From Candidatus Altimarinota bacterium (lineage in GTDB: Bacteria; Patescibacteriota; Gracilibacteria; BD1-5; UBA2023), in contig JANJWP010000024.1 of assembly GCA_024709505.1 (NCBI GenBank), positions 1-42,750 of the forward strand: 42,750 nucleotides of DNA, given 5' to 3'. Numbering within the stretch: the stretch's first letter is position 1; each line of letters begins with the position of its first letter. The notes under the pieces are model-generated. The model was not told where the DNA came from, made no database searches, and worked only from the letters and a program-made list of their open reading frames with translations. The translations under genes were made by a program, and so were the position numbers. Below are positions 1 through 38,691 of this stretch, one piece after another.

Positions 1-1
1 G

Positions 2-706
2 GTCGAACGATTTTTTTTCTTCGACCACGACACGCTCGAACCCGGCAATCTCATCCGGCACGCGTGCGGGAGTCGGCACGTTGGAAAAAACAAGGCCCAA
101 GCGACCAAGGCGCTCCTCGAAGAATATTCCGGAACGGCGCTCGACCGCGTTTTTCCTTCTTCGAAAAATATCTTCGACGTCGAATCGGGCTTCGAAGACG
201 CGATGGAAAAAGCCGACGTGGCCGTCATCGCCACCGACACCGACGCTTCCCGCGCGTATGCGAACGACGTCTCGGTCGAAAAAGGCGTTCCCGCAGTATT
301 CGTGAGCATGTTCGAGAACGGGTGCGGAGGCGAAATATTCGTCCATCGTCCCGGGGAATGCTGCTACGGATGCCTCATGCTCCACCAAGAACGCCACGAA
401 TTCTTCGAACGTTACCAAAATACCGCGCGCAAAGCCGATTGCTCTTCGGCGCGCGACGTACGGAGCATGCCGGGAATCGGTATCGACCAGCGCTTTTTGT
501 CGGCCATCGCGTCGAGAACGGCGCTCGACCTCCTTTTGGAAGGGTCGGCGCACGCGCTTCCACCCATTGGCGCGCCCATCGCCTCGAATTGGACCGTTTT
601 TTCGGTCTCGGGAATCGAGGGAATCCTCGAAAACCCCCTTTCGAGCCTTCGGTACCGGATGGAAAGGCATTTGGATTGTCGGTGTGGAAAGCATTCTGGC
701 CGATAA
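2..706 (+). CDS. ThiF/E1-like adenylating enzyme, 5'-truncated by the window edge
   Basis: This is the C-terminal part (about 234 residues) of a ThiF/MoeB/E1 superfamily enzyme, which adenylates the C-terminus of a ubiquitin-like protein or peptide. The frame is open from base 2 and stops at TAA. Visible are the end of the Rossmann nucleotide-binding region (FFDHDTLEPGNLIRH, then a VGKNKA helix), the VIATDTDASR strand/loop typical of E1 adenylation domains, a CYGC pair and a C-terminal CRC pair that could bind zinc. The glycine-rich loop lies upstream of the window. It is clearly paralogous to the E1 at 32563-33381: both share VFVSMFE, a conserved Cys followed by ARD, RSMPGIGIDQ and a C-terminal Cys cluster. 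It has no in-frame TGA. Its partners are not visible, so it may end another conjugation cluster. Family assignment is firm; the substrate is unknown. Confidence 0.85.
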   Translation, partial: VERFFFFDHDTLEPGNLIRHACGSRHVGKNKAQATKALLEEYSGTALDRVFPSSKNIFDVESGFEDAMEKADVAVIATDTDASRAYANDVSVEKGVPAVFVSMFENGCGGEIFVHRPGECCYGCLMLHQERHEFFERYQNTARKADCSSARDVRSMPGIGIDQRFLSAIASRTALDLLLEGSAHALPPIGAPIASNWTVFSVSGIEGILENPLSSLRYRMERHLDCRCGKHSGR

Positions 707-22642: not shown

Positions 22643-23800
22643 TTATACCCCGACGAGCCGGGTCACGACTTCCATTTTGGCTTCGATTTTCGCGTTCATT
22701 TTCGCCGCGCCCTTTCGAAGGACCTCTTCGACGAATTCGGGATTGTTCTTAAGCGATTCGTAGCGGTCGCGAATGGGCTTGAGATATTCGAGAAGGATTT
22801 CGAGAAGTTCCATTTTGGCGTGACCGTATCCGTAGCCGGTTCCCTTTTCGAATTTCTCGCGCATGGCTGCGAGGCGTTCCGGCGTGGCGAAGACCTTGGC
22901 AAGAGCGTAAACGTCGTTGTCGAGCGGCTTGGGGTCGTCGAGCCCTTCGGAGCCGGTAACGATTTGGGCGATCTTTTTCTTGAGCGTCTTTTCGTCGTCG
23001 AACACGCCGAGAAAGTTGTCGTACGACTTGCTCATTTTGCGCCCGTCGATACCGGGCAGGGTTTCGACGGCTTTTTCGACGTGGGCGACGGGTTCTTTAA
23101 AGACGTCTTGCCCGTAGGTCTTATTGAAGGCGCGAGCGATGTCGCGGGCCATTTCAAGGTGCTGGATTTGGTCTTTCCCTACCGGCACGACGTCAGTGTC
23201 GTAGGCGAGGATGTCGGCCGCCATGAGGATGGGGTACGTGAAGGTGGCCATGTTGAGATTGTTTTCAAATCGTCGGACAACATCATTCAGCTTTTCTTTT
23301 CATGCACTGATTTTTTCCTCCATTTCTTCAATATTTCGACGTAGGTTCTTTTCATGATTTCCACCGGTCCCACGTGATCAGGTAAGTCTTAGAAAATCTT
23401 CATAGACTTCATTCCGTCATTCATGATGTGCTATAACACGGAACAAATCTTCTCTTTCTTGCTGAAAATCCTTATATGAATGCGCCCTCAGCATCAGCGA
23501 ATACGGCGTCACGCTTCCTAAAACCCAGTTGAGTTTTGGGATGAGCGCGATGTCCGACTGGCGAAAAATACTGATTTCGGTATCCGGTCCGTGAACGGCG
23601 AGATACGTGAGCGCGAGCTCAAACGACTGCTTGCGGAGTTTTTCGCCGTCGTGCACGCTTGTGAGCGCGTGGAGATCGGCGATGAAAATGGCGGCGTCGT
23701 TGCCGCGGGCCAAGCGGTCGAACGGCAAAACGGCTCAAACGAGGTTGCCCAAATGCATCGACGTGCCGGTGGGCTTTACGCCGGTGAGAATCTTTTTCAT
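22643..23800 (-). CDS. trpS: Tryptophanyl-tRNA synthetase with a ~65-residue AT-rich insertion
   Basis: 385 residues; bacterial TrpS is usually about 330. The N-terminus has KKILTGVKPTGTSMHLGN (the HIGH-type motif) with a TGA as the glycine after GNLV. The catalytic half continues with TFTYPILMAADIL, VGKDQIQHLE and GRKMSKSYDN (KMSKS). Between RAHSYKDF and NLNMATFTYP lies an in-frame segment of about 65 residues (23262-23470). It is markedly AT-richer than its surroundings, contains three TGAs and encodes a charged, coiled-coil-like helix. The normal spacing here is a short linker. No stop interrupts the whole frame if UGA=Gly. Stop TAA. Confidence 0.9.
23262..23470 (-). other. AT-rich in-frame insertion within trpS
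   Basis: About 200 bp of clearly lower GC than flanking trpS sequence, in frame, with no stop if UGA=Gly. The encoded stretch is charged and helical (NIEEMEEKISAGKEKLNDVV). No inverted terminal repeats or intein motifs are visible. Boundaries are estimated from where TrpS conservation stops and resumes. Confidence 0.6.
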
Positions 23801-25810: not shown

Positions 25811-27880
25811 TTATTCCCCGCTCCCCAAAACGATATTCACCGGACGCAAATCGGGTTCGAAGACCGTTTTTCCATGCCGCACCTTTCGGGAAAGGTGGAG
25901 GAGCCTTCCGCGCGAATCGCAAAGTCAAAGTTCCGCCGATTTGGCAACGCCTACCCGGGAAATGAAGCGCCTTCTCCGCAACGCTTCGCGCTCGGAAATC
26001 CGAAGGAGCTTCCATGCCGTGAGAAGGTAGTCGCGGGAAGCGCCGAAATCTTTTCCGGCAAGCACGAGCGAATTCGGAAAATCTTTGGCGGAAGCGGCAA
26101 CCGGAGGCGTCATTTGGTTCGCGATGACGAACGGCACGATTTCGAGACTTGGGGAATCTTCGAATTTTCCGGGGGCGGAATCGGGATGGTTGATATCGCC
26201 GTCGCTCGGTCAAAGCGGGCCTCCGGGATGCTTGTGCCAGTTGAAAAAATCGAGCGCGTGAGGGAAGGGATTGGAATTTCCGGATTCTTCGGCCGCACGC
26301 CTCGAAGCCGAAAGAAAGAGCGTTCGTTCCGCTTCGGGAAAATCGCGGAACGCCTTTGAAAAATGCTCGGTCGCATACGGTTCCCAAGCGTCCGGCCGAA
26401 TCGAAAACTCGACCGACGTCGCGTCGATTTGCTCGAAAGGCGGATTCGCGAGATTTTTCAAAGGCAGGCGTCCATCATGAGCGGCGTATCCGCTCGAAAA
26501 CCAAAACCCTCCGGTTTCACGGTTTTGCGAAACCGTTTTCGGGTGTTCCAATTGCCGAAAGATGCTTTCGGCGTCCGAACGCGACAAAACATACGTCCCA
26601 AGGTCGCGGAGTTCGCGAGCCTTCGCTTTTTCGCGGAAATGGGCGAATTCGTAGTAAGCGTCCGAAAGGGCCGCGTCGAATTCTCCACGGTTTTGGTTTG
26701 ATCCGCCGGAGAGCGGACGGGTCGTAACGAAACGTTCCTTTTCAGCCTCAATCCAAACGAACCGAAGGCTTGAGCCCGTCGCGTTCGGTTCGAGGGAAAC
26801 CCGAAATTCTCAAGAAATCGAAGGGATCGTTTCGAAACGAGGTTCGGTCGAAACGTTCGGAAGAACGGATTGGAAGGATTGGGGCTGGGGGGAACGATCC
26901 AATGGGCGGCGTATCGGGCGGCGGTTTCTCTTCGACGGACGGTGGCGGAACCATTTCCACCACAAAGCGGCAACCCCCGAAACGGCAAGCGCCGGAGCCA
27001 GCCAAGGCAAGGAAATTCCGGAGGGATTTTGAGCATGTGGAACATGGGCGTCGGAATTCCGGGCATCTTGAACCGGAGCCTCCTCCAAATCCTCCGGACG
27101 ATTTCCCATCGCGTCGGCCACGATCGCCGCATCGTCAATGCCGGAGGAACCATACGCCCGAAGCAGGACATTTTCGATTTCTTCGGAGGAAAGCGAGCGC
27201 GTGACCGATTCGAATGCTTCTTTGGAAAATCCGTTCGGAAAAAAACCGAGGTCATTCATCGCGGAAACGATTTTTCCATTCGGATCGGCAACGAAGGCTG
27301 AGACGTGGGGAACTTCGGCATTCAATCGCGCCGATTCGGAAAGCGGGACTCCTGCGGAAAGCCCCTCGACGCGGCGGACCGATTGCTCGAGCGTAACGTA
27401 GGATTGGTTCGGGTGGTCTTCGCGAACGTCGTCGAAGATTTTCCGAACGTCGTCGGCAGTCAGCGAATCCGTCTCCCCCACCGAAGCGGAACTGGAAAAC
27501 GGGAGCGCATGGGCGTTTCAAGAAGGGGACGGCGAAATGAATTCCTCGGCAATTTCGACGGCTTCGGCCGAAGGAAGGGCGAGAATCGCGGAGACGCACG
27601 CCGCGGTGGCGAGCGCGATTTTCGTAGCGTTTCCATGTTCTTTGGACGACCGAAAAAGGCTCTCCAACGCAAAAAACGTTCCGATTCCGCCCAAGACGCT
27701 CCGACATGCGACGGCTCATCCAGCAACGGCGAACATTCACGAAGAGGCGGCAATTGCGGCGCCCGAAGCGAGCGCGATCCCCACCGCAAAGCGGACTTTT
27801 GCGGTGGTTTTCCAAACGTCGCGGAAACATTCGATCCCAAAGGATGGAACGGGGATGTCGGACAGGGACGAAACGGTCAT
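25811..27880 (-). CDS. Membrane-anchored JAMM/JAB metalloprotease-like protein 1
   Basis: 689 residues with six TGAs read as Gly. Hydrophobic segments lie at about 30-75 and 87-104 (the second resembles a signal peptide, ending LPSAEA). An outer domain follows with a helical motif (DDVRKIFDDV, then YVTLEQSVRRVEGL, about 140-240). A membrane helix (290-311) and a basic stop-transfer (HRPSKRNRR) place the C-terminus inside. The C-terminal JAMM domain has HKHPGGPL(G)PSDGD near residues 548-561, a perfect HxH-x7-SxxD zinc site. The TGA inside it must be an amino acid. JAMM enzymes cleave ubiquitin-like isopeptide bonds. It is a paralogue of the protein at 36121-38691. The ATG directly follows an in-frame TAA, fixing the start. 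Stop TAA. Confidence 0.82.
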
Positions 27881-30538: not shown

Positions 30539-30563
30539 ACCGGATTTTTTCAACTGCCAGACC

Positions 30564-31319
30564 ATGATCTTCTCTTTCGAAACCAATCCGACGTACGCGT
30601 TCCTCCATGCAATCAACATGGCGCAATCGGACGAGCCGTTCGAAGGGTGGTCGGATTTTACGAACGCCATTTGGGAAGAATCCCCCGAGGTTTTCTATTT
30701 TCTTGCGGGAAGCGGAGAATACAGCCTCTACGGACACGACATTCCCACGACCGCCGCGATGGCTATGGAAAAACTCGAAAGACTCAAGGAAGATGCCAGC
30801 TTCAAACGACTTGAAAACGAAGTGTCGGAATACCGGAATTTCGTATCGAAGCAGTGGTCTAAAAACGAAGGGGCGGTTCTCGGGTTCTTTGAATCCCTCT
30901 GAATCGAAATGCCTGAGGATTCCAAAGGCATGAGGGTATTCCTTACTCATCCGAAACTCCGAAACGGCCTTACCGTGGACGATTCGACGATCGTTTGGGG
31001 ACATTCGGAAGATTTTGAAAATTATTCGACCGTCTATCTTGCCCACGAGTTCCTGCACATAGCGACGGCCCACGACCCTTCCGACGTGACCCACGCGATC
31101 ATCGAGCTCGCAGCCGATAACGAAACCCGTATCCGGCTCAACGGAAAGGGGGAATATTTCGAATATCCGGGACACCGGCGCCTCGTGGAAATCGAAAAAC
31201 TTCTCCTTCCCTTCTGGAGAACGTATCTCGAATCCGGACGGAAAGACTTTTCGAATTTCGTCGAAGAGGCAAAAAAAAGGTGGCACGAGGCCACCGGAAA
31301 TCAGGCGGAAGGGTCGTAA
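30564..31319 (+). CDS. Putative zinc metallopeptidase (HExxH)
   Basis: 251 residues with one TGA (30900-30902, residue 113) read as Gly. The zinc motif is H161-E162-F-L-H165 in YLAHEFLHIATAH, followed 17-22 residues later by Glu in IIELAADNE, which could be the third ligand (gluzincin-like). The N-terminal half is helical, with SKQWSKNEGAVLGF. There is no signal peptide, so it acts in the cytoplasm. Family not identified; helix-zinc-helix peptidases of the DUF2268 type are a loose analogy. It lies 25 bp after argS. It converges on, and seems to have replaced the 3' end of, the radical SAM maturase gene. Stop TAA. Confidence 0.65.
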
Positions 31320-31329
31320 TCGCAACGGG

Positions 31330-32220
31330 CTGGAGCGCCGTGCAATCCCCTTCCCTGAGCTATGCTGAGCGATCGAAACGTCGGTTCCCCGGCCGGATTC
31401 GCGGACGTCGTCGAAGCCGAACTGCGAAGGATCTTCGATGAAGTTCTCCGAAAGGAGGAAATCGCGAACCTCGTCCATATGCGCTTCGTTCTGGCGCATC
31501 CGCACGAGACCGATCCGAAAAGGAATGCCCAGTCTTTTTGCTCCCCGAAGGTTCTTCAGCCACTTTCGGAAACTTCCGGGGGTTTTCGTACACGCGTCGT
31601 GGATTTCTTCGGTATGCCCGAAGACACTCGTCGCGAGGGAAACGCCCATCCCGGAAAGCCGTTCGAGATCGTCTTTCCGAAAAAGCGTGGCATTGGAGAA
31701 CACCTCCAGTTCTTCGAACTCAAGGGAACGCGCGTATTCCAAGATTTCCCAAAAGCCCTTGTGGACCAAAGGTTCCCCTCCGACGATTTGGCATTTCCGG
31801 AATTTCGCGCTTTTCAACTGGTCGAGAACCCTTCTGGCCGTTTCGACGGACATGCCTCGGCTTCGGACCGGTCCGCTTTCGGCATAGCAATGAATGCATT
31901 TTTCATTGCACGCCCCCGTAATTTCCACCCAGGCGATATCGAGGACGTCGAGTTTCGCTTGCGCTTCGGAGGTATCCGGAAGGAACATTCGACCGAGAAT
32001 CCCCCCCTTCGACACAATTCCCGTGGATTTCCGGAGTTTCGCGAAGCAGGTATTCGAGCTTTTCGCAAATCTCCGCGGAACTTTGCGCGATTTGCACCAA
32101 GTAGTTGGCGGTACCGGGGTCGATGACGCGTATGGCCTGACCGAAAAGGTCGTAGAGAGCCCACTTGTTGATGCCTTCGACGAGGAACAATCCGTCGCCG
32201 ATATTTTCCGTCCGCTTCAT
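31330..32220 (-). pseudogene. Radical SAM peptide maturase with N-terminal RRE-like domain: frameshifted and truncated
   Basis: The first 73 codons (from ATG 32220, RBS GGAGG) encode a PqqD-like/RRE-type domain (NKWALYDLFGQAIRV, DPGTANYLVQIAQ). The frame then shifts at a C7 run (32001-32007, G7 in the mRNA); removing one base joins it to the radical SAM core. The core has C104-N-E-K-C108-I-H-C111 (the 4Fe-4S/SAM site), GGEPLVHKG, and FRIGLVRMRQNE and DDVRESGRG, typical of SPASM-type RiPP maturases. After RESGRG no SPASM Cys follow; the frame runs open into the antisense of the metallopeptidase gene. So the auxiliary-cluster domain is missing. The shift may be a sequencing error, a programmed shift or decay. 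The 3' end given is where homology-like sequence stops. Confidence 0.7.
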
Positions 32221-32239
32221 GTTCGCCTCCGAATTCGTT

Positions 32240-32272
32240 GGAAAAGAAAAACGGAGGGGCGAGCCCCTCCGT
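32240..32272 (-). terminator. Terminator between the precursor peptide and maturase genes
   Basis: A perfect 10-bp stem ACGGAGGGGC / GCCCCTCCGT with a 2-nt loop, followed on the minus strand by TTTTTCTTTTCC. It would give much more peptide mRNA than maturase mRNA, a common RiPP operon design. Confidence 0.85.
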
Positions 32273-32284
32273 CGGTAAGTCCCC

Positions 32285-32422
32285 TTATTTCGGGGAACAA
32301 GCGCCCGGCTTGCAGCACTGGGCCTGCATGGGCACACCGCCCGTAGAGGCGGCGACGCCCGACTGGACGACTTCCTGGACGGGTTTCCAGGAGGGGTCTC
32401 CCGGCTTTACGGCTTGAATCAT
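32285..32422 (-). CDS. 45-residue Cys-rich peptide, candidate RiPP precursor
   Basis: The start is set by AGGAG 7 nt before ATG; stop TAA. The peptide has a Cys-free front half (MIQAVKPGDPSWKPVQEVV) and a GG near residues 28-29. The C-terminus VPMQAQCCKPGACSPK has three Cys in 16 residues. Leader/core layout, own promoter, terminator and the following RRE-radical SAM maturase gene support a ribosomally made, post-translationally modified peptide. The Cys could become thioether-linked. Alternatively it is a small metal-binding or modifier peptide handled by the neighbouring E1/E2 enzymes. No matching family recognised. Confidence 0.7.
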   Translation of the reverse strand: MIQAVKPGDPSWKPVQEVVQSGVAASTGGVPMQAQCCKPGACSPK

Positions 32423-32475
32423 GGCAAATCTCCTTTATTGCGTTCATCACCGGGGAAATCCCGATGACATAATAT

Positions 32476-32503
32476 GTATTAACTAAATTAATGATAAAGT
32501 CAA
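32476..32503 (-). promoter_or_regulatory. Promoter of the Cys-rich peptide gene
   Basis: Minus strand TTGACT (32503-32498), 16 bp, TAATAC (32481-32476), in a very AT-rich stretch just after the E1 terminator. The leader to the ATG is about 50 nt. Confidence 0.6.
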
Positions 32504-32514
32504 TGCTTTGGAGT

Positions 32515-32548
32515 CATGAAAAAAACCGCCCCATTTCGGGGCGGTTTT
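32515..32548 (-). terminator. Terminator of the E1/E2 operon
   Basis: An 11-bp stem AAAACCGCCCC / GGGGCGGTTTT, followed on the minus strand by a run of seven T, 15 bp after the E1 stop codon. Confidence 0.9.
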
Positions 32549-32562
32549 CGATTGAACCGGTT

Positions 32563-33381
32563 CTACGGAACGGCGCATTCGCAGTCCGGAAAACTCGGAG
32601 GATTTTGTTTGATGCTTGAGAGGTGTTCGTCGAGAACGCCCGGAATTCCGAACAACGAAAGGATCGTCCACGACTCGCCGACGTTCGGCAGGGAGTGTTC
32701 TTGTCCTTCGAGGAGGATTTCGAGCGCCTTTCTTGCGGCCAAGGCCGAAAAGAACGATTGGTCGATGCCAATGCCGGGCATCGACCGGGCATCACGGGCG
32801 AGATGGCACTGGGCTTTCTCGGCCGTTTTTTCATACTCTTCGAGCATGTCCTGTCGGCCAAGATGGCGCATCAGGCAGGAAAAACAGGCGCCATGGCCCG
32901 GGCGATACGCGAAAACCTCGCCGGCCTTCCCTTTTTCGAACATGCTGACGAATACGGCCGGAGTGGCGGTCTCGATAGAAAGTTCGTTCAAGAAAAACCG
33001 GGAAGAATCGGTGTCGGTCGCGACGATGAGAACGTCGGATTCGGCCATTGCGGCACGAGTGGTCGAATGGTTCTCGAAAACGCTCGTTTCATGCACGAAC
33101 GCCTCGATACCTTCGCCCGCGTATTCGCGCAGGTATTCGGCCACCGCGGCGGCCTTGTTTTTTCCCACGTACTTGATTCCGCAGGAGTGGCGTACGAGAT
33201 TTCCCGCCTCAAGCGTGTCGAAATCGAAGAGATGGAAGCGGGAAACGCCGGAACGAAGCAGGTGCATCGCGATTTCGGCTCCGCCACCAAGTCCGACGAT
33301 CATGACGGTCGAATCCTTGAGGGGCGGGTGCAAGGCGTCCCGCCGAGCGTTCCGCTCGGTAAAGGGGGTATCTTGTCGCAT
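32563..33381 (-). CDS. E1-like (ThiF/MoeB family) adenylating enzyme
   Basis: 272 residues. Adenylation domain: VMIVGLGGGAEIAMHLL (ATP loop, residues 27-42), LFDFDTLEAGNLVRHSCG (Asp55, Asn61, Arg64), VGKNKAAAV (Lys74/76), VLIVATDTD (Asp122). Zinc-type Cys pairs are C166-x2-C169 and C267-x-C269. Cys192 in KAQCHLARDARSMPG is a candidate acceptor for a thioester. This is a minimal E1, as in bacterial ubiquitin-like systems, ThiF/MoeB and RiPP adenylators. It is the last gene of the operon with the E2 (33719) and the 83-residue protein (33445). SD is AAAGGAAC. No in-frame TGA; stop TAG. It is a paralogue of the enzyme at 2-706. Confidence 0.88.
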   Translation of the reverse strand: MRQDTPFTERNARRDALHPPLKDSTVMIVGLGGGAEIAMHLLRSGVSRFHLFDFDTLEAGNLVRHSCGIKYVGKNKAAAVAEYLREYAGEGIEAFVHETSVFENHSTTRAAMAESDVLIVATDTDSSRFFLNELSIETATPAVFVSMFEKGKAGEVFAYRPGHGACFSCLMRHLGRQDMLEEYEKTAEKAQCHLARDARSMPGIGIDQSFFSALAARKALEILLEGQEHSLPNVGESWTILSLFGIPGVLDEHLSSIKQNPPSFPDCECAVP

Positions 33382-33409
33382 GGGAGTTCCTTTCTTGCGA
33401 AGAAAGACC

Positions 33410-33437
33410 GTCCGCGCGGAAAAATTCCCGCGCGGAC
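33410..33437 (-). promoter_or_regulatory. Stem-loop between the 83-residue gene and E1
   Basis: A perfect 10-bp stem GTCCGCGCGG / CCGCGCGGAC, followed on the minus strand by a T-rich but interrupted GGTCTTTCTTC. It may be a partial terminator or a 3'-stabilising hairpin that raises the 83-residue product over E1. Confidence 0.55.
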
Positions 33438-33444
33438 GACCCGG

Positions 33445-33696
33445 TTAGACGAACGAACGGACCATGGTCCCGAGCTGGGTCATGTTATCCTGAACGTCCT
33501 TGGGCAAGTCGCGGTACTCCTTCGACTGGGTATTGCCCACCTGGCCAACAGGGCTGATGACCATGTTGGCCTTGCCTTGGCTGAACGGCTCGATGGCACG
33601 AGTCGTCGCCTCGACGTCGATCGGTTTGCGGTCACCGTCGAGGCCGAACGCGGAGAGGTCGAGTTCGACGGCGGGAGAGGTGGCGTTATTGCTCAT
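33445..33696 (-). CDS. 83-residue protein between E1 and E2, candidate modifier or substrate
   Basis: AAGGAG 7 nt before ATG; stop TAA. No recognised family. The sequence starts with a Ser/Asn-rich tail, then VELDLSAFGLDGDRKPIDV, a middle ANMVISPVGQVGN and a helical C-terminus DLPKDVQDNMTQLGTMV ending RSFV. It has no C-terminal GG, so it is not a classical ubiquitin-like modifier unless processed, but its position between E2 and E1 and its following stem-loop suggest an abundant partner protein. No Cys, no signal peptide, no membrane segment. It could be the conjugated protein, a substrate or an adaptor. Confidence 0.65.
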   Translation of the reverse strand: MSNNATSPAVELDLSAFGLDGDRKPIDVEATTRAIEPFSQGKANMVISPVGQVGNTQSKEYRDLPKDVQDNMTQLGTMVRSFV

Positions 33697-33718
33697 GATG
33701 TCGCTCCTTGGAAAAACT

Positions 33719-34177
33719 TCAGTTGGCTTCCGGCAGGATCCAGCGGCCGGAACGGATTTGCACTTCGTGGGCATGGATCCATGCGGCGGCGATATTCAAG
33801 ATGAAGTAGCCGCCCTTTTTGGGTTCCCAACCCGTTCCGACGCGGTCGTCGGGCTTCAAAACGCAAAGCGTGACCCCGCCGTCGCGTTCGCCACGATGGT
33901 GCGCCGAATGCATCCCTTGGGACAAGCAGTACGCCTTCACGTCGCGGTCCATGACGACCGCGTCGGGAGCGGAATACGGAAAGTCTTCCGGGTAATAGAG
34001 GCGCACCTTGTAGGCGTTTTGGTTGATCGTCACGATCACGCCTTCGGCGTACATGACGTCCCCTGCCATCAGGATCTTGAAGAAGGGAAAAGCGGCATTG
34101 AGCAAATCCACCTCCTGCTTCAAGCGGGGAAGAAATTTCCCTGGGTCCTTCCCGACCCAATTCGGTAGTTGCGCCAT
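33719..34177 (-). CDS. E2-like ubiquitin-conjugating fold protein
   Basis: 152 residues to an apparent TGA stop. It fits a prokaryotic E2 (UBC) fold: YKVRLYYPEDFPYSAPDAVV (the beta-meander and P-x-x-P-like turn, residues 57-75), a His-rich loop MHSAHHRGERDGG, the catalytic Cys at about C105 in GVTLCVLKPDD, then a Trp-containing GWEPKKGG and LNIAAAWIHAHE, the helix with conserved Trp seen in bacterial E2s. E2s accept a modifier from E1 as a thioester. SD AAGGAG 6 nt before ATG. If TGA is Gly the protein gains 10 residues and ends at TAA 33686, overlapping the next gene by 11 nt. TGA as the true stop gives normal operon spacing. Confidence 0.82.
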   Translation of the reverse strand: MAQLPNWVGKDPGKFLPRLKQEVDLLNAAFPFFKILMAGDVMYAEGVIVTINQNAYKVRLYYPEDFPYSAPDAVVMDRDVKAYCLSQGMHSAHHRGERDGGVTLCVLKPDDRVGTGWEPKKGGYFILNIAAAWIHAHEVQIRSGRWILPEAN

Positions 34178-34202
34178 ATCAGTCTCCTTTCGTAACTATG
34201 GC

Positions 34203-35276
34203 TTAATGAAAAGAATCGGGTACGTCGCCGCTTGCGGAAACTCCGCGCGCGGTAACGTGATTCGGATTGAGACCCGAATTCCTACGGCGTTGCCCCGAAT
34301 TCCTACGGCGAGGCTCGGGGGCATCAGGACGCGGCTCAGATGGTTGGGAAGGCGGGATGCCGAAGGTTCCCCGATGCCGTTCCAACGTTGGAAGTTCCCG
34401 GGATTGTGTCCAGGCCCTCCAAAGCGAAACGATCATCTTTCCCAAAAATACGAGGACGAGGCCTAAAAGGCTCGCTAAGATGCCAATGGCTGCCAGGAAA
34501 AACCTCCAGGCATGGGGAAAAAATTCCGTGCGCTTATGAAGCTGATAGGCAACGACGGAGAAGAAGGCAATGCCCGCGGCAATCGCGAGCGCGTTGAGGA
34601 AAGCCCGCTTCGGAGAATCTGAAACGGAGGATGGTGAGACCCCTTTGGACGGCGCCTCCGATTTCGAGGCCGGACGGGAATCATTCGACCTCAAGGGCCC
34701 GATGGGTTCGAAAGGCTTGATAGAGCCAGCGTCATCGGCCTTTTTCAGAGCCGAGAACTGAAGGTTTCCGTCCGGAGAATACGAACAAACTCCGGAGCGT
34801 TTCCCAACGTTTTTTTCCCCGGATTCGCAAGCCCCTTCCAACCGGTTTTCCACCCACTCCCCGGAAAAATACGTTCCGTCCGGACGAGCGTACGTACCAG
34901 TGCCATGGCGTTTTTCATGAAGGAAATGCCCCTCATAAAACGCCCCGGTCTTCGATGCGTATTTTCCCAGTCCGGTAATGCAGCGGCCACTTACGCAGCC
35001 AACGCCCTCGGCAATGAGTTCTTCGAGACGCCGGAACTTTCGTTCCTTCGAATCGAGCGCGTCAAGTTCCGAAGATATCCGCCGCAATTCGGCAAGGGCC
35101 TCGTCCGGCTCGGTCGTCGCCCGGGATTTCGCCAGGTCGGCAGCCTTTCCGAGTTCGGCCCGCCGGTCTTGCATGACGGCGCGCATTTCGGCAATCTCCT
35201 CCCGTCCCGGCTCCGAAAAAACCGGAGCCGAAACCAGAAGCAGCACGGCCGAAAAAAGGATGGCAACGGTTTTCAT
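34203..35276 (-). CDS. MORN-repeat membrane protein with signal peptide
   Basis: 357 residues. Signal peptide 1-21 (cleavage after PVFS). A charged coiled-coil (about 25-90) follows, then GRCITGLGKYASKTG and MORN repeats (GAFYEGHF, GTYFSGEW) at about 105-150, used for lipid or protein binding. A Ser/Pro-rich linker (180-220) leads to two membrane helices (about 226-250 and 262-285) and a basic tail. The tail has a short tandem repeat (RRRNSG twice, from a 16-bp DNA repeat near 34280). The N-terminal region faces outside. SD GGAGG 9 nt before ATG. It overlaps the lipoprotein gene by 4 nt in the classic ATGA arrangement. Stop TAA. Role unknown; perhaps a scaffold at the membrane. Confidence 0.72.
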   Translation of the reverse strand: MKTVAILFSAVLLLVSAPVFSEPGREEIAEMRAVMQDRRAELGKAADLAKSRATTEPDEALAELRRISSELDALDSKERKFRRLEELIAEGVGCVSGRCITGLGKYASKTGAFYEGHFLHEKRHGTGTYARPDGTYFSGEWVENRLEGACESGEKNVGKRSGVCSYSPDGNLQFSALKKADDAGSIKPFEPIGPLRSNDSRPASKSEAPSKGVSPSSVSDSPKRAFLNALAIAAGIAFFSVVAYQLHKRTEFFPHAWRFFLAAIGILASLLGLVLVFLGKMIVSLWRAWTQSRELPTLERHRGTFGIPPSQPSEPRPDAPEPRRRNSGQRRRNSGLNPNHVTARGVSASGDVPDSFH

Positions 35277-35476
35277 GTCGAAGTTCCTCCCGTCCGATTC
35301 TTAATGGAACGGTGGAGCTCTTCGATTTCGCGGCGTTTCCGGTCTTCGGCTTTTTCGGCCTCGGTTGGAACGGACGGCTTGGCTTCGGGACGACGAACGT
35401 ATGATCCGCTCGACGAACAACCGCCCAAAACTGCCACGAAAACGAAAATGAGGGTGAGGGTTCGCAGAGCGTTCAT
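35273..35476 (-). CDS. Small lipoprotein
   Basis: 67 residues. A classic lipobox signal: hydrophobic MNALRTLTLIFVFVAVLGG then Cys20 (LGGC), giving a mature protein CSSSGSYVRRPEAKPS with an acidic/basic helical tail. SD AAGGAG 7 nt before ATG. The frame stops at TGA overlapping the next ATG. Read as Gly, this TGA would force about 94 more residues of Arg/Pro-rich nonsense overlapping the MORN gene, so TGA looks like a real stop here. It probably sits on the outer face of the cytoplasmic membrane with the MORN and JAMM 2 proteins. Confidence 0.7.
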   Translation of the reverse strand: MNALRTLTLIFVFVAVLGGCSSSGSYVRRPEAKPSVPTEAEKAEDRKRREIEELHRSIKNRTGGTST

Positions 35477-35489
35477 GGCACATCTCCTT

Positions 35490-36005
35490 TCAATAACGTT
35501 GGAAGCGGAGCTTCCGATAGATTTCGCGCGCGTTCGAAACGTTCATTTCAACCACGCCTGGATCGACTCCGGATTCCCGGAGCACGGACAAAGGAATTTC
35601 GTACGCTTCACCGCCAAAGGGCAATTCAAAGATGCGGAGATGGCGGTTTTTCACGTCTCCGAGAAAAAGGATCCCAACGATGTTGGAACGCCAATCCCCC
35701 CGGAGAGTCATGGCAACGTAGGTTCGACCAGAAAAAACGGTCAGCTCCGGAGTTCCTGGAACGTCGCCATTAAAAACAGCATCGGTCCGAACCTTCCGGA
35801 ATTCTTTTTCCACTTCGCGGCGCACCGAACGGAACGGAATCGAAAACAGTCGGGCAAGCAATCCAAACACGCGGGAAAGCATCCACCAAAGGGCGAATCC
35901 CGAGAGCGCGAACAACGAAAGCGAACTTCCCCTTCCGCCGGCAAGCGCGCGATTGAACAACACGGCAAGAAAACCTGCCGAGAGCATGTCACGGAACTTG
36001 GGCAT
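35490..36005 (-). CDS. Unknown membrane protein of the conjugation operon
   Basis: 171 residues. Two closely spaced hydrophobic helices (about 10-23 and 29-55, with FALWWMLSRVFGLLARLF), then a cytoplasmic or outer domain of about 110 residues (VFSGRTYVAMTLRGDW, LRIFELPFGGEAYEIPLSVL). No family recognised. SD AAGGAG before ATG. The frame stops at TGA (35490-35492), and 7 nt later an SD plus ATG of the lipoprotein follow. If TGA were Gly, the frame would overlap the entire lipoprotein gene (about 63 more residues), so TGA likely terminates. It follows JAMM 2 with a 115-bp gap that holds a short CGGCGG / CCGCCG hairpin. Confidence 0.65.
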   Translation of the reverse strand: MPKFRDMLSAGFLAVLFNRALAGGRGSSLSLFALSGFALWWMLSRVFGLLARLFSIPFRSVRREVEKEFRKVRTDAVFNGDVPGTPELTVFSGRTYVAMTLRGDWRSNIVGILFLGDVKNRHLRIFELPFGGEAYEIPLSVLRESGVDPGVVEMNVSNAREIYRKLRFQRY

Positions 36006-36120
36006 GGTCTTCTCCTTCTAAAACGAGAATGTTAAGGAACTCTCGGCGGTATTCCGCCGGAACCCGGAACCCGAAAATCTTCGGGGCGCGCGTTCCGGAG
36101 GAATACCCGGACGTATCGGC

Positions 36121-38691
36121 TTAATCGATGCGAGCGACTTCCACGGGAACGAGATCGGGTCCGAACGTTCCCACGTTTTCGATTCGAATCTCACGATGGA
36201 GATGCAACAGCCTTCCATCCGAAGAAACCAGTCAGAACGAACGGGCTCGAGCAAAGCCGATCTTCTCCACCGCTTCGTTCCGGCGGGTTTTTTCTTCTTC
36301 CAAAATGCGCAACACCTTCCAAAAAGTGAATACGTAGTCGCGTTCCCCGCCGAATTCGTTCCCCTTAAGGACGAGGAACGTTCCGGGCTTCAAGGAGGTC
36401 AACGACGAGAATCGGTCGATCCGGTTGGCGATGGCGTAGGTCATCGCGCCCATTCCGGGTGCCAGTTCAAAAACGAGCGGGGTGGCGTTCGGACTGTTGA
36501 GATCGCCTTGGCTTGGGGAAAGCGGTGCGCCCGGATGTTTGTGCCAATTGAAAAGGAATGCGGTGAGAGGAGTGCGGAATTTCCGTTCGAAATAGGTCTC
36601 GAATCGAGAAAACAAACGGTTTCGCGCATGGGAAATATTGGGAAGCACGTACGTTTGGGACGCCGATTCCCGGATGCCGAATTCCACCGAAGACGAATCG
36701 ATTTCATGGTCTTTCGGAAGCGCAAGCCCTTCGAAGCGGAAGGTTCATCGAGAAACGAGATACGGCGACGAGAACCAGTGTCCGCCCGTTTCCCGATTGG
36801 AACGGGAAGTCGCCGGGTCTTCGAGCTGGCCGTAAATTTTGGAGAGATCTTCCGAAGCGACTTCGAACTTTTGGACGTTGCGAAAATCTTCGTATTTCGC
36901 AGCATTTCGGGCAAGAAGCGCCGAGCGGCAAAATTCTTCGCATGCGTTTTCAAGGTTCCGAGCGAATGCGTCCAATTCCCCAATTTCAAGCGGAAGCGGA
37001 GTTCCCCAAGAATTTTCAAAAATGGTTTTTCCATCATCGAAACAGAATGTCGAGACTATGACCGACCCGTCGGAGACGGATATCTCCGTCACGAATTCGG
37101 ATCCGGTGGGAACGCGCTGCGAATACGCGAGGGTTCCGGTATAGTCCTTCGAAGAAGATGAGCGGTTCGGGTCGATTGAGAATTTCCAATCATCGACGAA
37201 GAGGGTTTTCGTTTTCCTAAACGCGGCGATTCGGGCGATTTTCTTCGGATCGGTCTCGGAAATGTCGGACAGCCATTCGGGAAGCGCTTCGGATTTTGAG
37301 GCCTCCTCGGACAAGGCGGGAACCGGAGCGAAAACGGGGTCGGCGGAAGGAACGGGGGTATCGGGCGCGGGTGCCGGAGCCGGGATGGCGGCGGGTGCCG
37401 CCGGAGCTTCCGCGGGATTGGGAGCGGGAACGACGGATTGAAACGGAATGCTTCCTTCCTCTCTCTTTCGACGGGCAGTCTCTTTCCGACGGCGGAATAT
37501 CCAACCGAAGCCTACCGCCAGCATTCCGGTCGCAGTGGCGACAAGCCCCCAATTGCTTGTGGCAGAAGAAGATTGGGCGACCGAAACGGGAATTGAATCG
37601 ACAGAAGGAACGGGGGTATCGGGCGCGGGTGCCGGAGCCGGGATGGCGGCGGGTGCCGCCGGAGCTTCCGCGGGATTGGGAGCCTGCTCGGAAACCGGGG
37701 TTTGCACGGGTTCCGGGATTTCAGCCGGAACGCCTCCGTCTTGGATCGCGTATGCCCTTTCCAAAACCGCTTGGATTTTTTCTTCGGACATTCGCCGGGC
37801 CGCTTCGTCAACGGTTTGGTTGGAAGCAAGATATCAGAGCTCTTTCATGGCAGTGGCGATTTTTCCGAAAGGATCGTGAACGGCTGCGGAAACGGAAGCG
37901 TTCAATCCGGCGAGGTTTTCGGATTGGGATAAGGGAATTCCTCGTGACAATCCTTCGATGCGCCGAACGGATTGTTCGAGGGTAACGTATTTTTGACCGG
38001 GATGATCGTGACGTATGTCGTTAAAAATTTCCGTTACCGGGGCTGGTAATGCCGGAGAAGGATTTGAAGCAAGAACCGATAATGCCCGGCTTCTCGTTTC
38101 GGAAGCGACCGATTGGACGGACGTCGCGGCGGCTTCGGCGGAAGAAGACGCTCAAAGCAAAGCCAGAACCGATCCCACCGTCGCGGCGGACACCTTCTTT
38201 ACCCCTTCGTAGAGGGAAGCCCGTTTTTGTGCCGCTTCCAATTGGAACGACAGTTCTCCTTCCTCGTAACGGCTGAATATCTCACGGACCAATGGATCGA
38301 GCTCGGCGCGGGTTTTGGCGGTTTCGATGGCCCGCAGGAGTCTGGAGAACGGATTTTTTCCCACGCGTTCAGCCACGAGATCAAACGCCGCTTCGGAAGC
38401 GAAATATCCGCCGACGGCCGACATGGCCACACGGGCCACGAGAATCGAGCCCGCAGCGACGGCGGCTCACGAAGCGACGGCCGCCGCCGAGGATGCGAGA
38501 AGTCCGGCTCAAACGACGAGGCGGGTTTTGGCGTTATCCTTCCACGCTTGTTTGAAACGGGAGAATCGGGATTTTTGGCGGCGTTCGACCGAGGCTTCGT
38601 AAGCTCAATCGACGAAACGGATGAAATCCTCCCGGGTGATGCGGGAAGGCCGGATTTGGGCGGACGCGGACGGGATGGCAATGGAAAACAT
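36121..38691 (-). CDS. Membrane-anchored JAMM/JAB metalloprotease-like protein 2
   Basis: 856 residues with seven TGAs read as Gly. N-terminal cytoplasmic tail, Ala-rich hydrophobic segments (about 57-100), a helical stretch, a signal-like segment (about 165-185, SVLALLGASSSAEA), and an outer domain (about 215-290, with YVTLEQSVRRIEGL) shared with JAMM 1. A Pro/Ala linker with an 80-bp DNA repeat flanks a membrane helix (about 379-400) and RRRKETARRKR. The C-terminal domain has HKHPGAPLSPSQGD near 716-729, a perfect JAMM zinc site. A TGA at about 37834 aligns with Gly of the JAMM 1 paralogue (AMKEL(G) versus AMNDLG), direct evidence for the code. It heads the operon with E2 and E1. Stop TAA. 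Confidence 0.82.
37346..37425 (+). repeat. 80-bp direct repeat, copy 1, in JAMM 2 linker
   Basis: Essentially identical to 37604-37683. It encodes a Pro/Ala-rich linker (APNPAEAPAAPAAIPAPAPA) on the minus strand, on the C-terminal side of the membrane helix. Confidence 0.85.
37604..37683 (+). repeat. 80-bp direct repeat, copy 2, in JAMM 2 linker
   Basis: Second copy of the repeat at 37346-37425, 258 bp away, encoding the linker on the N-terminal side of the membrane helix. Recombination between the copies would remove the helix in frame (258 is divisible by 3). Confidence 0.85.

What the first reader, a model, noticed from the sequence alone, without database searches (positions are those of the whole stretch)
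31330..38691. Ubiquitin-like conjugation genes combined with a RiPP-type peptide/radical SAM module
Seen: one minus-strand operon with a JAMM zinc-site protein (HKHPGAPLSPSQGD), a membrane protein, a lipoprotein, a MORN protein, an E2-like protein with candidate catalytic Cys105, an 83-aa protein and an E1-like enzyme; then a 45-aa Cys-rich peptide with its own promoter and terminator and an RRE-radical SAM gene. Established: bacterial E1/E2/JAB sets such as the Bil and CBASS type II systems conjugate modifiers to proteins; RRE plus radical SAM genes mature RiPPs. I know of no described system with this full combination and with membrane-embedded JAMM, lipoprotein and MORN partners. Inference: a CPR system that modifies a membrane or surface protein with a peptide or small protein, perhaps for defence or episymbiosis.
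Basis: partly seen in the sequence, partly recalled or inferred. Interest (0 to 1): 0.9.

Follow-up and report, generated by a model that had tools for sequence, protein, structure and literature searches.

The report
Two genetic codes in one operon
In bacteria that read the codon TGA as glycine, a ubiquitin-like protein-tagging operon is written as if TGA still meant stop, while its partner protease gene beside it uses TGA as glycine; this suggests the tagging genes are made to be read by another, standard-code cell such as the host these parasites live on.

Summary
The window is a Gracilibacterium contig. [quoted passage not shown] The 'JAMM protein' is the C-terminal part of one 856-aa membrane JAMM protein (36121-38691) with seven in-frame TGA=Gly codons. 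JAMM, E2 and E1 occur together in 7 genomes of one family and in none of 52 other relatives tested for JAMM. The RiPP module is not part of the conserved system.

The unexpected result concerns the code. In six genomes tested in detail, the E1, small, E2, coil/MORN, lipoprotein and membrane genes hold no TGA codon (0 of about 480 glycines; combined p about 1e-48). All 38 tested have Shine-Dalgarno sites, against about 12% of native genes. Many end in TGA, although these genomes have no RF2. JAMM follows the native rules, even where it lies between these genes (G011). A same-genus pair shows the pattern is old and maintained.

Best explanation: the conjugation genes are kept readable for standard-code ribosomes, most likely in the host cell, and JAMM is made at home. 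The sequence facts are firm; the place of translation is inference.

The parts
36121..38691 (-). JAMM/JAB membrane metallopeptidase, 856 aa, native code 25: seven in-frame TGA=Gly (codons starting at 38607, 38511, 38469, 38154, 37836, 36747, 36234); no Shine-Dalgarno
   Evidence: Code-25 alignment of 7 homologues: E-TGG, HxHP and PSxxD kept; TGA falls in Gly columns
35490..36005 (-). membrane protein (N-terminal helix, long TM helix, small beta-meander domain), 171 aa, no TGA=Gly, SD AAGGAG, ends in TGA
   Evidence: Family A5 found only in operon genomes apart from one weak hit; AF2 pLDDT 79; no convincing PDB match
35273..35476 (-). small lipoprotein, 67 aa, ends in TGA overlapping the next ATG (code-25 read-through 94 codons)
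   Evidence: Lipobox LGGC; counterpart at the same place in other genomes
34203..35276 (-). coil/MORN/TM protein with disordered tail and conserved C-terminal motif (S/D)Gx[VI]Px[SD][FLYI]x: candidate E1 substrate
   Evidence: MORN Pfam 1.4e-4; C-termini conserved in 7 copies
33719..34177 (-). E2-like (UBC fold), catalytic Cys105, 152 aa, ends in TGA
33445..33693 (-). small protein, 82 aa, fused to the E1 N-terminus in G008 and G017
32563..33381 (-). E1-like ThiF-family adenylating enzyme, 272 aa
   Evidence: Pfam ThiF 2.4e-25; PADLOC E1-E2 3e-27; invariant CxxC and Cys192
32519..32544 (-). terminator after E1 (CCGCCCCGAAATGGGGCGG + T-run)
   Evidence: read directly from the sequence
1..706 (+). 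C-terminal part of the E1 of the second copy (copy B); rest on contig C16
   Evidence: 141-bp identical overlap of C16 end and window start
25811..27880 (-). second JAMM protein (JAMM2), six in-frame TGA=Gly
32285..32422 (-). 45-aa Cys-containing peptide ORF with SD; separate module, not conserved with the system
31300..32220 (-). RRE-like part plus radical SAM, two frame breaks at G-runs; separate module
   Evidence: Pfam Radical_SAM 1.3e-23; not conserved

Best explanation
A membrane-associated ubiquitin-like conjugation system of Gracilibacteria whose parts are written for two translation systems. Shown: the small protein, E1, E2, coil/MORN, lipoprotein and membrane genes never use TGA as Gly, carry strong Shine-Dalgarno sites, and often end in TGA; the JAMM gene of the same locus uses TGA as Gly and has no Shine-Dalgarno, like the rest of the genome. 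Inferred: the first group is maintained for translation by standard-code ribosomes with RF2, most likely in the cytoplasm of the host on which these epibionts live. There E1 and the small protein would activate the conserved C-terminal tail of the coil/MORN membrane protein (or of the membrane protein) and E2 (Cys105) would attach it to targets, as type II CBASS attaches its CD-NTase. JAMM, which a standard-code cell cannot make whole, is made in the Gracilibacterium and removes the conjugates there, acting as home-side protection. How the genes or transcripts would reach the host is unknown.
For: Genome is code 25: TGA at conserved Gly, only RF1, UCA tRNA with Gly identity bases in G011. Conjugation genes: 0 TGA in 6 genomes, p = 3e-36 (G011), 5e-4, 0.04, 0.009, 8e-11, 8e-5; combined about 1e-48. 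JAMM in the same loci: 51/67, 7/52, 10/75, 19/57, 14/40, 12/57 Gly codons are TGA; in G011 JAMM lies between the small gene and E1. Stops: 12 of 22 end in TGA in GC-rich genomes, 3 of 24 in AT-rich ones, as for real stop codons; read-through would add 2-361 codons, and the G008 E1 has no in-frame TAA/TAG before its terminator. Of about 230 genes with orthologues, a TGA at the homologous terminus was seen only for operon genes, apart from one JAMM false positive and two borderline G011 cases. SD>=4 in 38/38 operon genes against about 12% of native genes (p about 1e-25); JAMM has none. Long residence: same-genus pair G008/G017 changed 33 of 47 shared Gly codons with no TGA, JAMM 34 of 38 with 12 TGA; GC3 0.74 vs 0.44. 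Flanking MutY and a second gene are shared between two genera. E1 and JAMM distances correlate 0.945. Closest enzymes are CBASS E1-E2 and E2. MCP receptors in relatives show similar features while CheA was not found.
Against: No route for DNA or RNA into a host was found. Transport known for relatives is DNA uptake (PMC8080830, Absconditabacteria). AAGGAG can still pair with the altered 16S tail in most of these genomes, so SD alone does not prove a foreign ribosome. In G017 and G010 all genes end in TAA and could be translated at home. Codon usage of the operon is atypical in G006 and partly in G011, as expected for transferred genes. In G037 a few ribosomal genes are also TGA-free. The substrate tail and the role of JAMM rest on sequence patterns only; JAMM is recognised by conserved motif, with only weak Pfam scores (0.02-0.08).
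Confidence: 0.42

Rival explanations
1. Code-takeover switch (defence inside the Gracilibacterium). The system works at home. When a phage or plasmid brings RF2 or removes the UCA tRNA, TGA becomes a stop: JAMM synthesis fails, the TGA-free conjugation genes stay readable, and unopposed conjugation kills or protects the cell, as in CBASS.
For: Same partition of TGA between JAMM and the other genes; TGA stops become correct only if RF2 arrives; enzymes are closest to CBASS; standard-code-compatible phages of Gracilibacteria are reported (PMC10746230).
Against: G017 and G010 use TAA throughout, so their genes would always be on, while their close relative G008 would be fully off; TGA-stop use follows GC content as if neutral. 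No CD-NTase or known effector in the operon.
Confidence: 0.2
2. Horizontal transfer: the conjugation genes came from standard-code bacteria, and SD sites, missing TGA and TGA stops are left over from the donor.
For: Patchy presence (7 of 27 family genomes); atypical codon usage in G006 and partly in G011; other TGA-free, SD-led genes of G011 (MCP, CheW, transglycosylase) look recently acquired.
Against: JAMM, always beside these genes and embedded among them in G011, is full of TGA; the same-genus pair shows saturated synonymous change without TGA; E1 and E2 codon usage is native in G000 and G008; synteny is shared between two genera; no homologue found outside the family in the collections searched.
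Confidence: 0.2
3. Expression-level effect: TGA-Gly is a slow codon, so strongly expressed genes avoid it and carry SD sites; TGA stops are tolerated read-through.
For: In G037 ribosomal S1, S2 and EF-Ts lack TGA.
Against: Those genes lack strong SD and have native-like codon usage, unlike operon genes in G011; in G011 no family-conserved gene outside the operon with 6 or more Gly lacked TGA; TGA stops in G008 would leave E1 without a stop codon before its terminator.
Confidence: 0.1

Closest known systems
Type II CBASS ubiquitin-like module (Cap2 E1-E2, short-type E2, Cap3 JAB)
   Same: E1, E2 with catalytic Cys, JAB peptidase, no ubiquitin-like modifier found; E2 closest by structure and profile to CBASS E2; conserved C-terminal tail as possible conjugated end
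   Different: No CD-NTase; E1 and E2 separate; JAMM is an 856-aa membrane protein; extra membrane, lipoprotein and coil/MORN proteins; candidate tail ends in a hydrophobic motif, not Gly or Ala; split genetic code
Bil / Bub bacterial ubiquitin-like operons and group 6 E1/E2/JAB operons (Iyer 2006, PMC1779556)
   Same: E1 + E2 + JAB gene set
   Different: No beta-grasp Ubl recognised; membrane parts; code split
Standard-code-compatible phages of Gracilibacteria and Absconditabacteria (Liu 2023, PMC10746230)
   Same: Genes free of in-frame TGA within the reach of a TGA=Gly host
   Different: Here chromosomal genes beside a TGA-rich partner gene; no phage homologue found; strong SD; true TGA ends

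Membership tests
Type II CBASS | CD-NTase in the operon | tested here: not met
   No such gene among the operon proteins scanned with Pfam or PADLOC, nor among listed neighbours
Type II CBASS | E1 and E2 domains related to Cap2 | tested here: met
   PADLOC E1-E2 3e-27 for E1; E2 models 1.9e-5 to 1.8e-10; PDB CdnG-E2 top hit
Type II CBASS | JAB peptidase | tested here: met
   E...HxHP...SxxD motif in 7 of 7 homologues; Pfam Prok-JAB only 0.02-0.08
Bil / Bub ubiquitin-like systems | beta-grasp ubiquitin-like modifier | tested here: inconclusive
   No profile hit for the small protein; its fold was not predicted; the membrane protein's model had no convincing match
Ubiquitin-conjugating E2 (UBC fold) | UBC fold with catalytic Cys | tested here: met
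ThiF/E1 superfamily | ThiF domain | tested here: met
   Pfam 2.4e-25
Code 25 genome (TGA=Gly) | TGA at conserved Gly, UCA tRNA-Gly, no RF2 | tested here: met
   the tRNA was seen in G011 only
RiPP precursor/maturase system joined to the operon | conserved linkage of peptide and radical SAM with E1/E2/JAMM | tested here: not met
   Not beside E1/E2 in the six other neighbourhoods; rSAM relatives distant and elsewhere

The most novel reading that the evidence does not exclude
Gracilibacteria keep a set of chromosomal genes in their hosts' genetic code (TGA stop, SD-led): the conjugation operon and perhaps aerotaxis-type receptors without CheA. The genes are delivered and translated in the host to tag its proteins and steer it, while the TGA-coded JAMM can be made only at home and serves as a code-locked antidote.
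Probability: 0.35. Interest if true: 0.98.

Novelty: categorically new. Interest (0 to 1): 0.93.

Why it matters
I know of no described bacterial chromosome with neighbouring genes of one operon in two genetic codes, each set conserved over deep divergence. If the conjugation genes are read in the host, this is gene delivery by a parasitic bacterium, recognisable from sequence alone, and gives a simple screen (TGA-free, SD-led, TGA-terminated genes) for host-directed genes in all recoded epibionts. If they are read at home under code takeover, it is a new way to sense phages. Either way it adds a CPR branch of membrane-bound ubiquitin-like conjugation.

Tried and rejected
E2 in phages, plasmids and viral contigs: no match. 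E2 in 346 other genomes of the class and 379 of the phylum: none. Fold of the membrane protein: no convincing PDB match. JAMM profile against PDB sequences: nothing useful. The small protein as modifier: disfavoured by its fusion to E1. Contamination or chimeric contigs: rejected, because the mixed code occurs within single loci of several genomes. A real stop inside JAMM at 36234: rejected, because JAMM2 has TGA at the same place followed by a conserved tail. Enrichment of TGA in JAMM over the genome was tested and is uneven (p 0.71 to 1.6e-8), so it is not used as an argument. First greedy estimates of TGA use in GC-rich genomes include antisense ORFs; conserved genes only were used for the final p values. 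MCP genes as the same class: suggestive, but their codon usage is often atypical, so recent transfer is not excluded.
Full report
What the window is. The window is contig C9 of a 1.17-Mb genome (33 contigs, 98% complete). A relative in the same family, G011, is the deposited 'Candidatus Gracilibacteria' STCSWMC_176. The genome reads TGA as glycine: TrpRS at 22646-23800 has TGA at its conserved Gly and three further TGA; one release factor per genome was found in six genomes, each of RF1 type, and no RF2; a UCA-anticodon tRNA with the glycine identity bases given in PMC8629427 is present in G011. Papers report TGA=Gly and no prfB for Gracilibacteria (PMC6851277).

The system. Read with the right code, the operon is JAMM (36121-38691, 856 aa), membrane protein, lipoprotein, coil/MORN protein, E2, small protein, E1. 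E2 has a UBC fold (pLDDT 90), closest to the E2 of short type II CBASS (Z 11.2; sequence E 7e-5). E1 is ThiF family, closest in PADLOC to CBASS E1-E2. JAMM keeps E-TGG, HxHP and PSxxD in seven homologues. E2 occurs in 7 of 147 relatives, all in one family, in no other of 346 genomes of the class, in no other of 379 drawn from the phylum, and not in phage, plasmid or viral contig collections. JAMM occurs in exactly the same seven genomes of 59. A second copy reaches into the window's left end from contig C16 (141-bp overlap), and a second JAMM is at 25811-27880.

The code split. In every genome the JAMM gene is one long frame only if TGA is Gly, with 7-51 TGA, whereas the conjugation and membrane genes have none. 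Against conserved native genes the depletion gives p = 3e-36 in G011, where 78% of Gly codons are TGA, and 5e-4, 0.04, 0.009, 8e-11 and 8e-5 in the others; combined about 1e-48. In G011 the gene order is lipoprotein, coil, E2, small, JAMM, E1, so a gene with 51 TGA lies between genes with none. The effect is thus a property of the genes, not of a DNA segment. In 780 kb of G011 only a handful of other genes lack TGA; several look recently acquired, one is a MORN-type protein with ordinary codon usage.

TGA as a stop. Three of six genes in the window copy end in TGA, and all five in G008. In GC-rich genomes 12 of 22 do, in AT-rich ones 3 of 24. Reading through would add 2-361 codons; for the G008 E1 no in-frame TAA or TAG precedes the terminator hairpin. 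Among about 230 genes with orthologues, TGA at the homologous end was seen for the operon genes (three in G008, one in G000), for JAMM (false, since the tail after it is conserved in JAMM2) and in two borderline G011 cases.

Initiation. Of 38 operon genes in six genomes all have a Shine-Dalgarno match of 4 or more bases, mostly 5-7. Of 142 native genes with orthologue-supported starts about 12% do (p about 1e-25). JAMM starts have none. The 16S 3' end is altered in this group: GGACTATCTCCTT instead of the canonical GGATCACCTCCTT, and CTCTTT in G006.

Age of the pattern. G008 and G017 belong to one genus, with locus GC of about 55% and 40%. Five operon proteins share 47 Gly positions; 33 changed codon, none to TGA. 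JAMM shares 38; 34 changed, 12 involving TGA (Fisher p 1.5e-4). GC3 of E1 is 0.74 and 0.44, so each gene has moved towards its genome's composition. A MutY gene and another flanking gene are shared between genera g1 and g8. E1 and JAMM distances correlate at 0.945. Recent transfer therefore does not explain the pattern well, although the operon's codon usage is atypical in G006 and partly in G011.

Mechanism. Shown: enzymes with conserved catalytic residues, membrane partners, and a coil/MORN protein whose variable tail ends in a conserved motif. Inferred: the tail is the conjugated end, as the CD-NTase tail in CBASS (PMC10097602), and JAMM reverses it. Inferred with more doubt: the conjugation genes are translated where TGA is stop and SD is used, most likely in the host. 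The main rivals are code takeover by phage and left-over features of transfer.

Related genes. MCP signalling domains occur in 13 of 59 relatives; 20 of 24 hold no TGA. Some are preceded by a PAS gene, have strong SD sites, or end in TGA. CheW domains were found in only three genomes, as single-domain CheW or a weak hit, so no CheA was seen. This fits host-directed genes but also repeated recent transfer, because their codon usage is mostly atypical.

RiPP module. The 45-aa ORF and the RRE/radical SAM region follow the E1 terminator, have SD sites and no TGA, but are broken at two G-runs and are not conserved with the system. They are best treated as separate.

Limits. All genomes are draft assemblies, most of them from metagenomes as far as named. 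Gene starts were inferred. The SD background and TGA background come from samples of each genome, not from whole genomes. No experiment has tested where these genes are read.

Noticed in passing
L142, L143, L144, L145, L146, L147, L148, L141 (16S 3' ends): The 16S anti-Shine-Dalgarno is altered in this Gracilibacteria group (ATCTCC or ATCTCT instead of ACCTCC), and native genes mostly lack SD sites.
   Followed up: partly
L156:519-2073, L158:321-2238, L155:1417-3000, L159:1096-3144, L003:333-2301: Aerotaxis-like PAS and MCP genes free of TGA, several SD-led or TGA-terminated, in genomes where no CheA was found.
   Followed up: partly
L027:7478-8077: In G011 a lone MORN-type membrane protein tens of kb from the operon is TGA-free and SD-led although its codon usage is native; possibly the missing MORN part of the G011 system.
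   Followed up: partly
window 31300-32422: 45-aa peptide plus RRE/radical SAM module with one-base frame breaks at G-runs (about 32003 and 31345); the gene end would be a TGA just before a terminator.
   Followed up: partly
window 30555-31319 (+): 254-aa protein with HEFLH zinc-type motif, one in-frame TGA, convergent with the radical SAM gene; no NCBIfam match.
   Followed up: no
L015:9445-9927 and L017:7699-8145: Second E2-like paralogues without the catalytic Cys, UEV-like, beside the active E2 in G006 and G010.
   Followed up: no
L176:13702-16938: In G037 ribosomal S1, S2 and EF-Ts genes have no TGA-Gly codons, so strong expression may also select against TGA.
   Followed up: no
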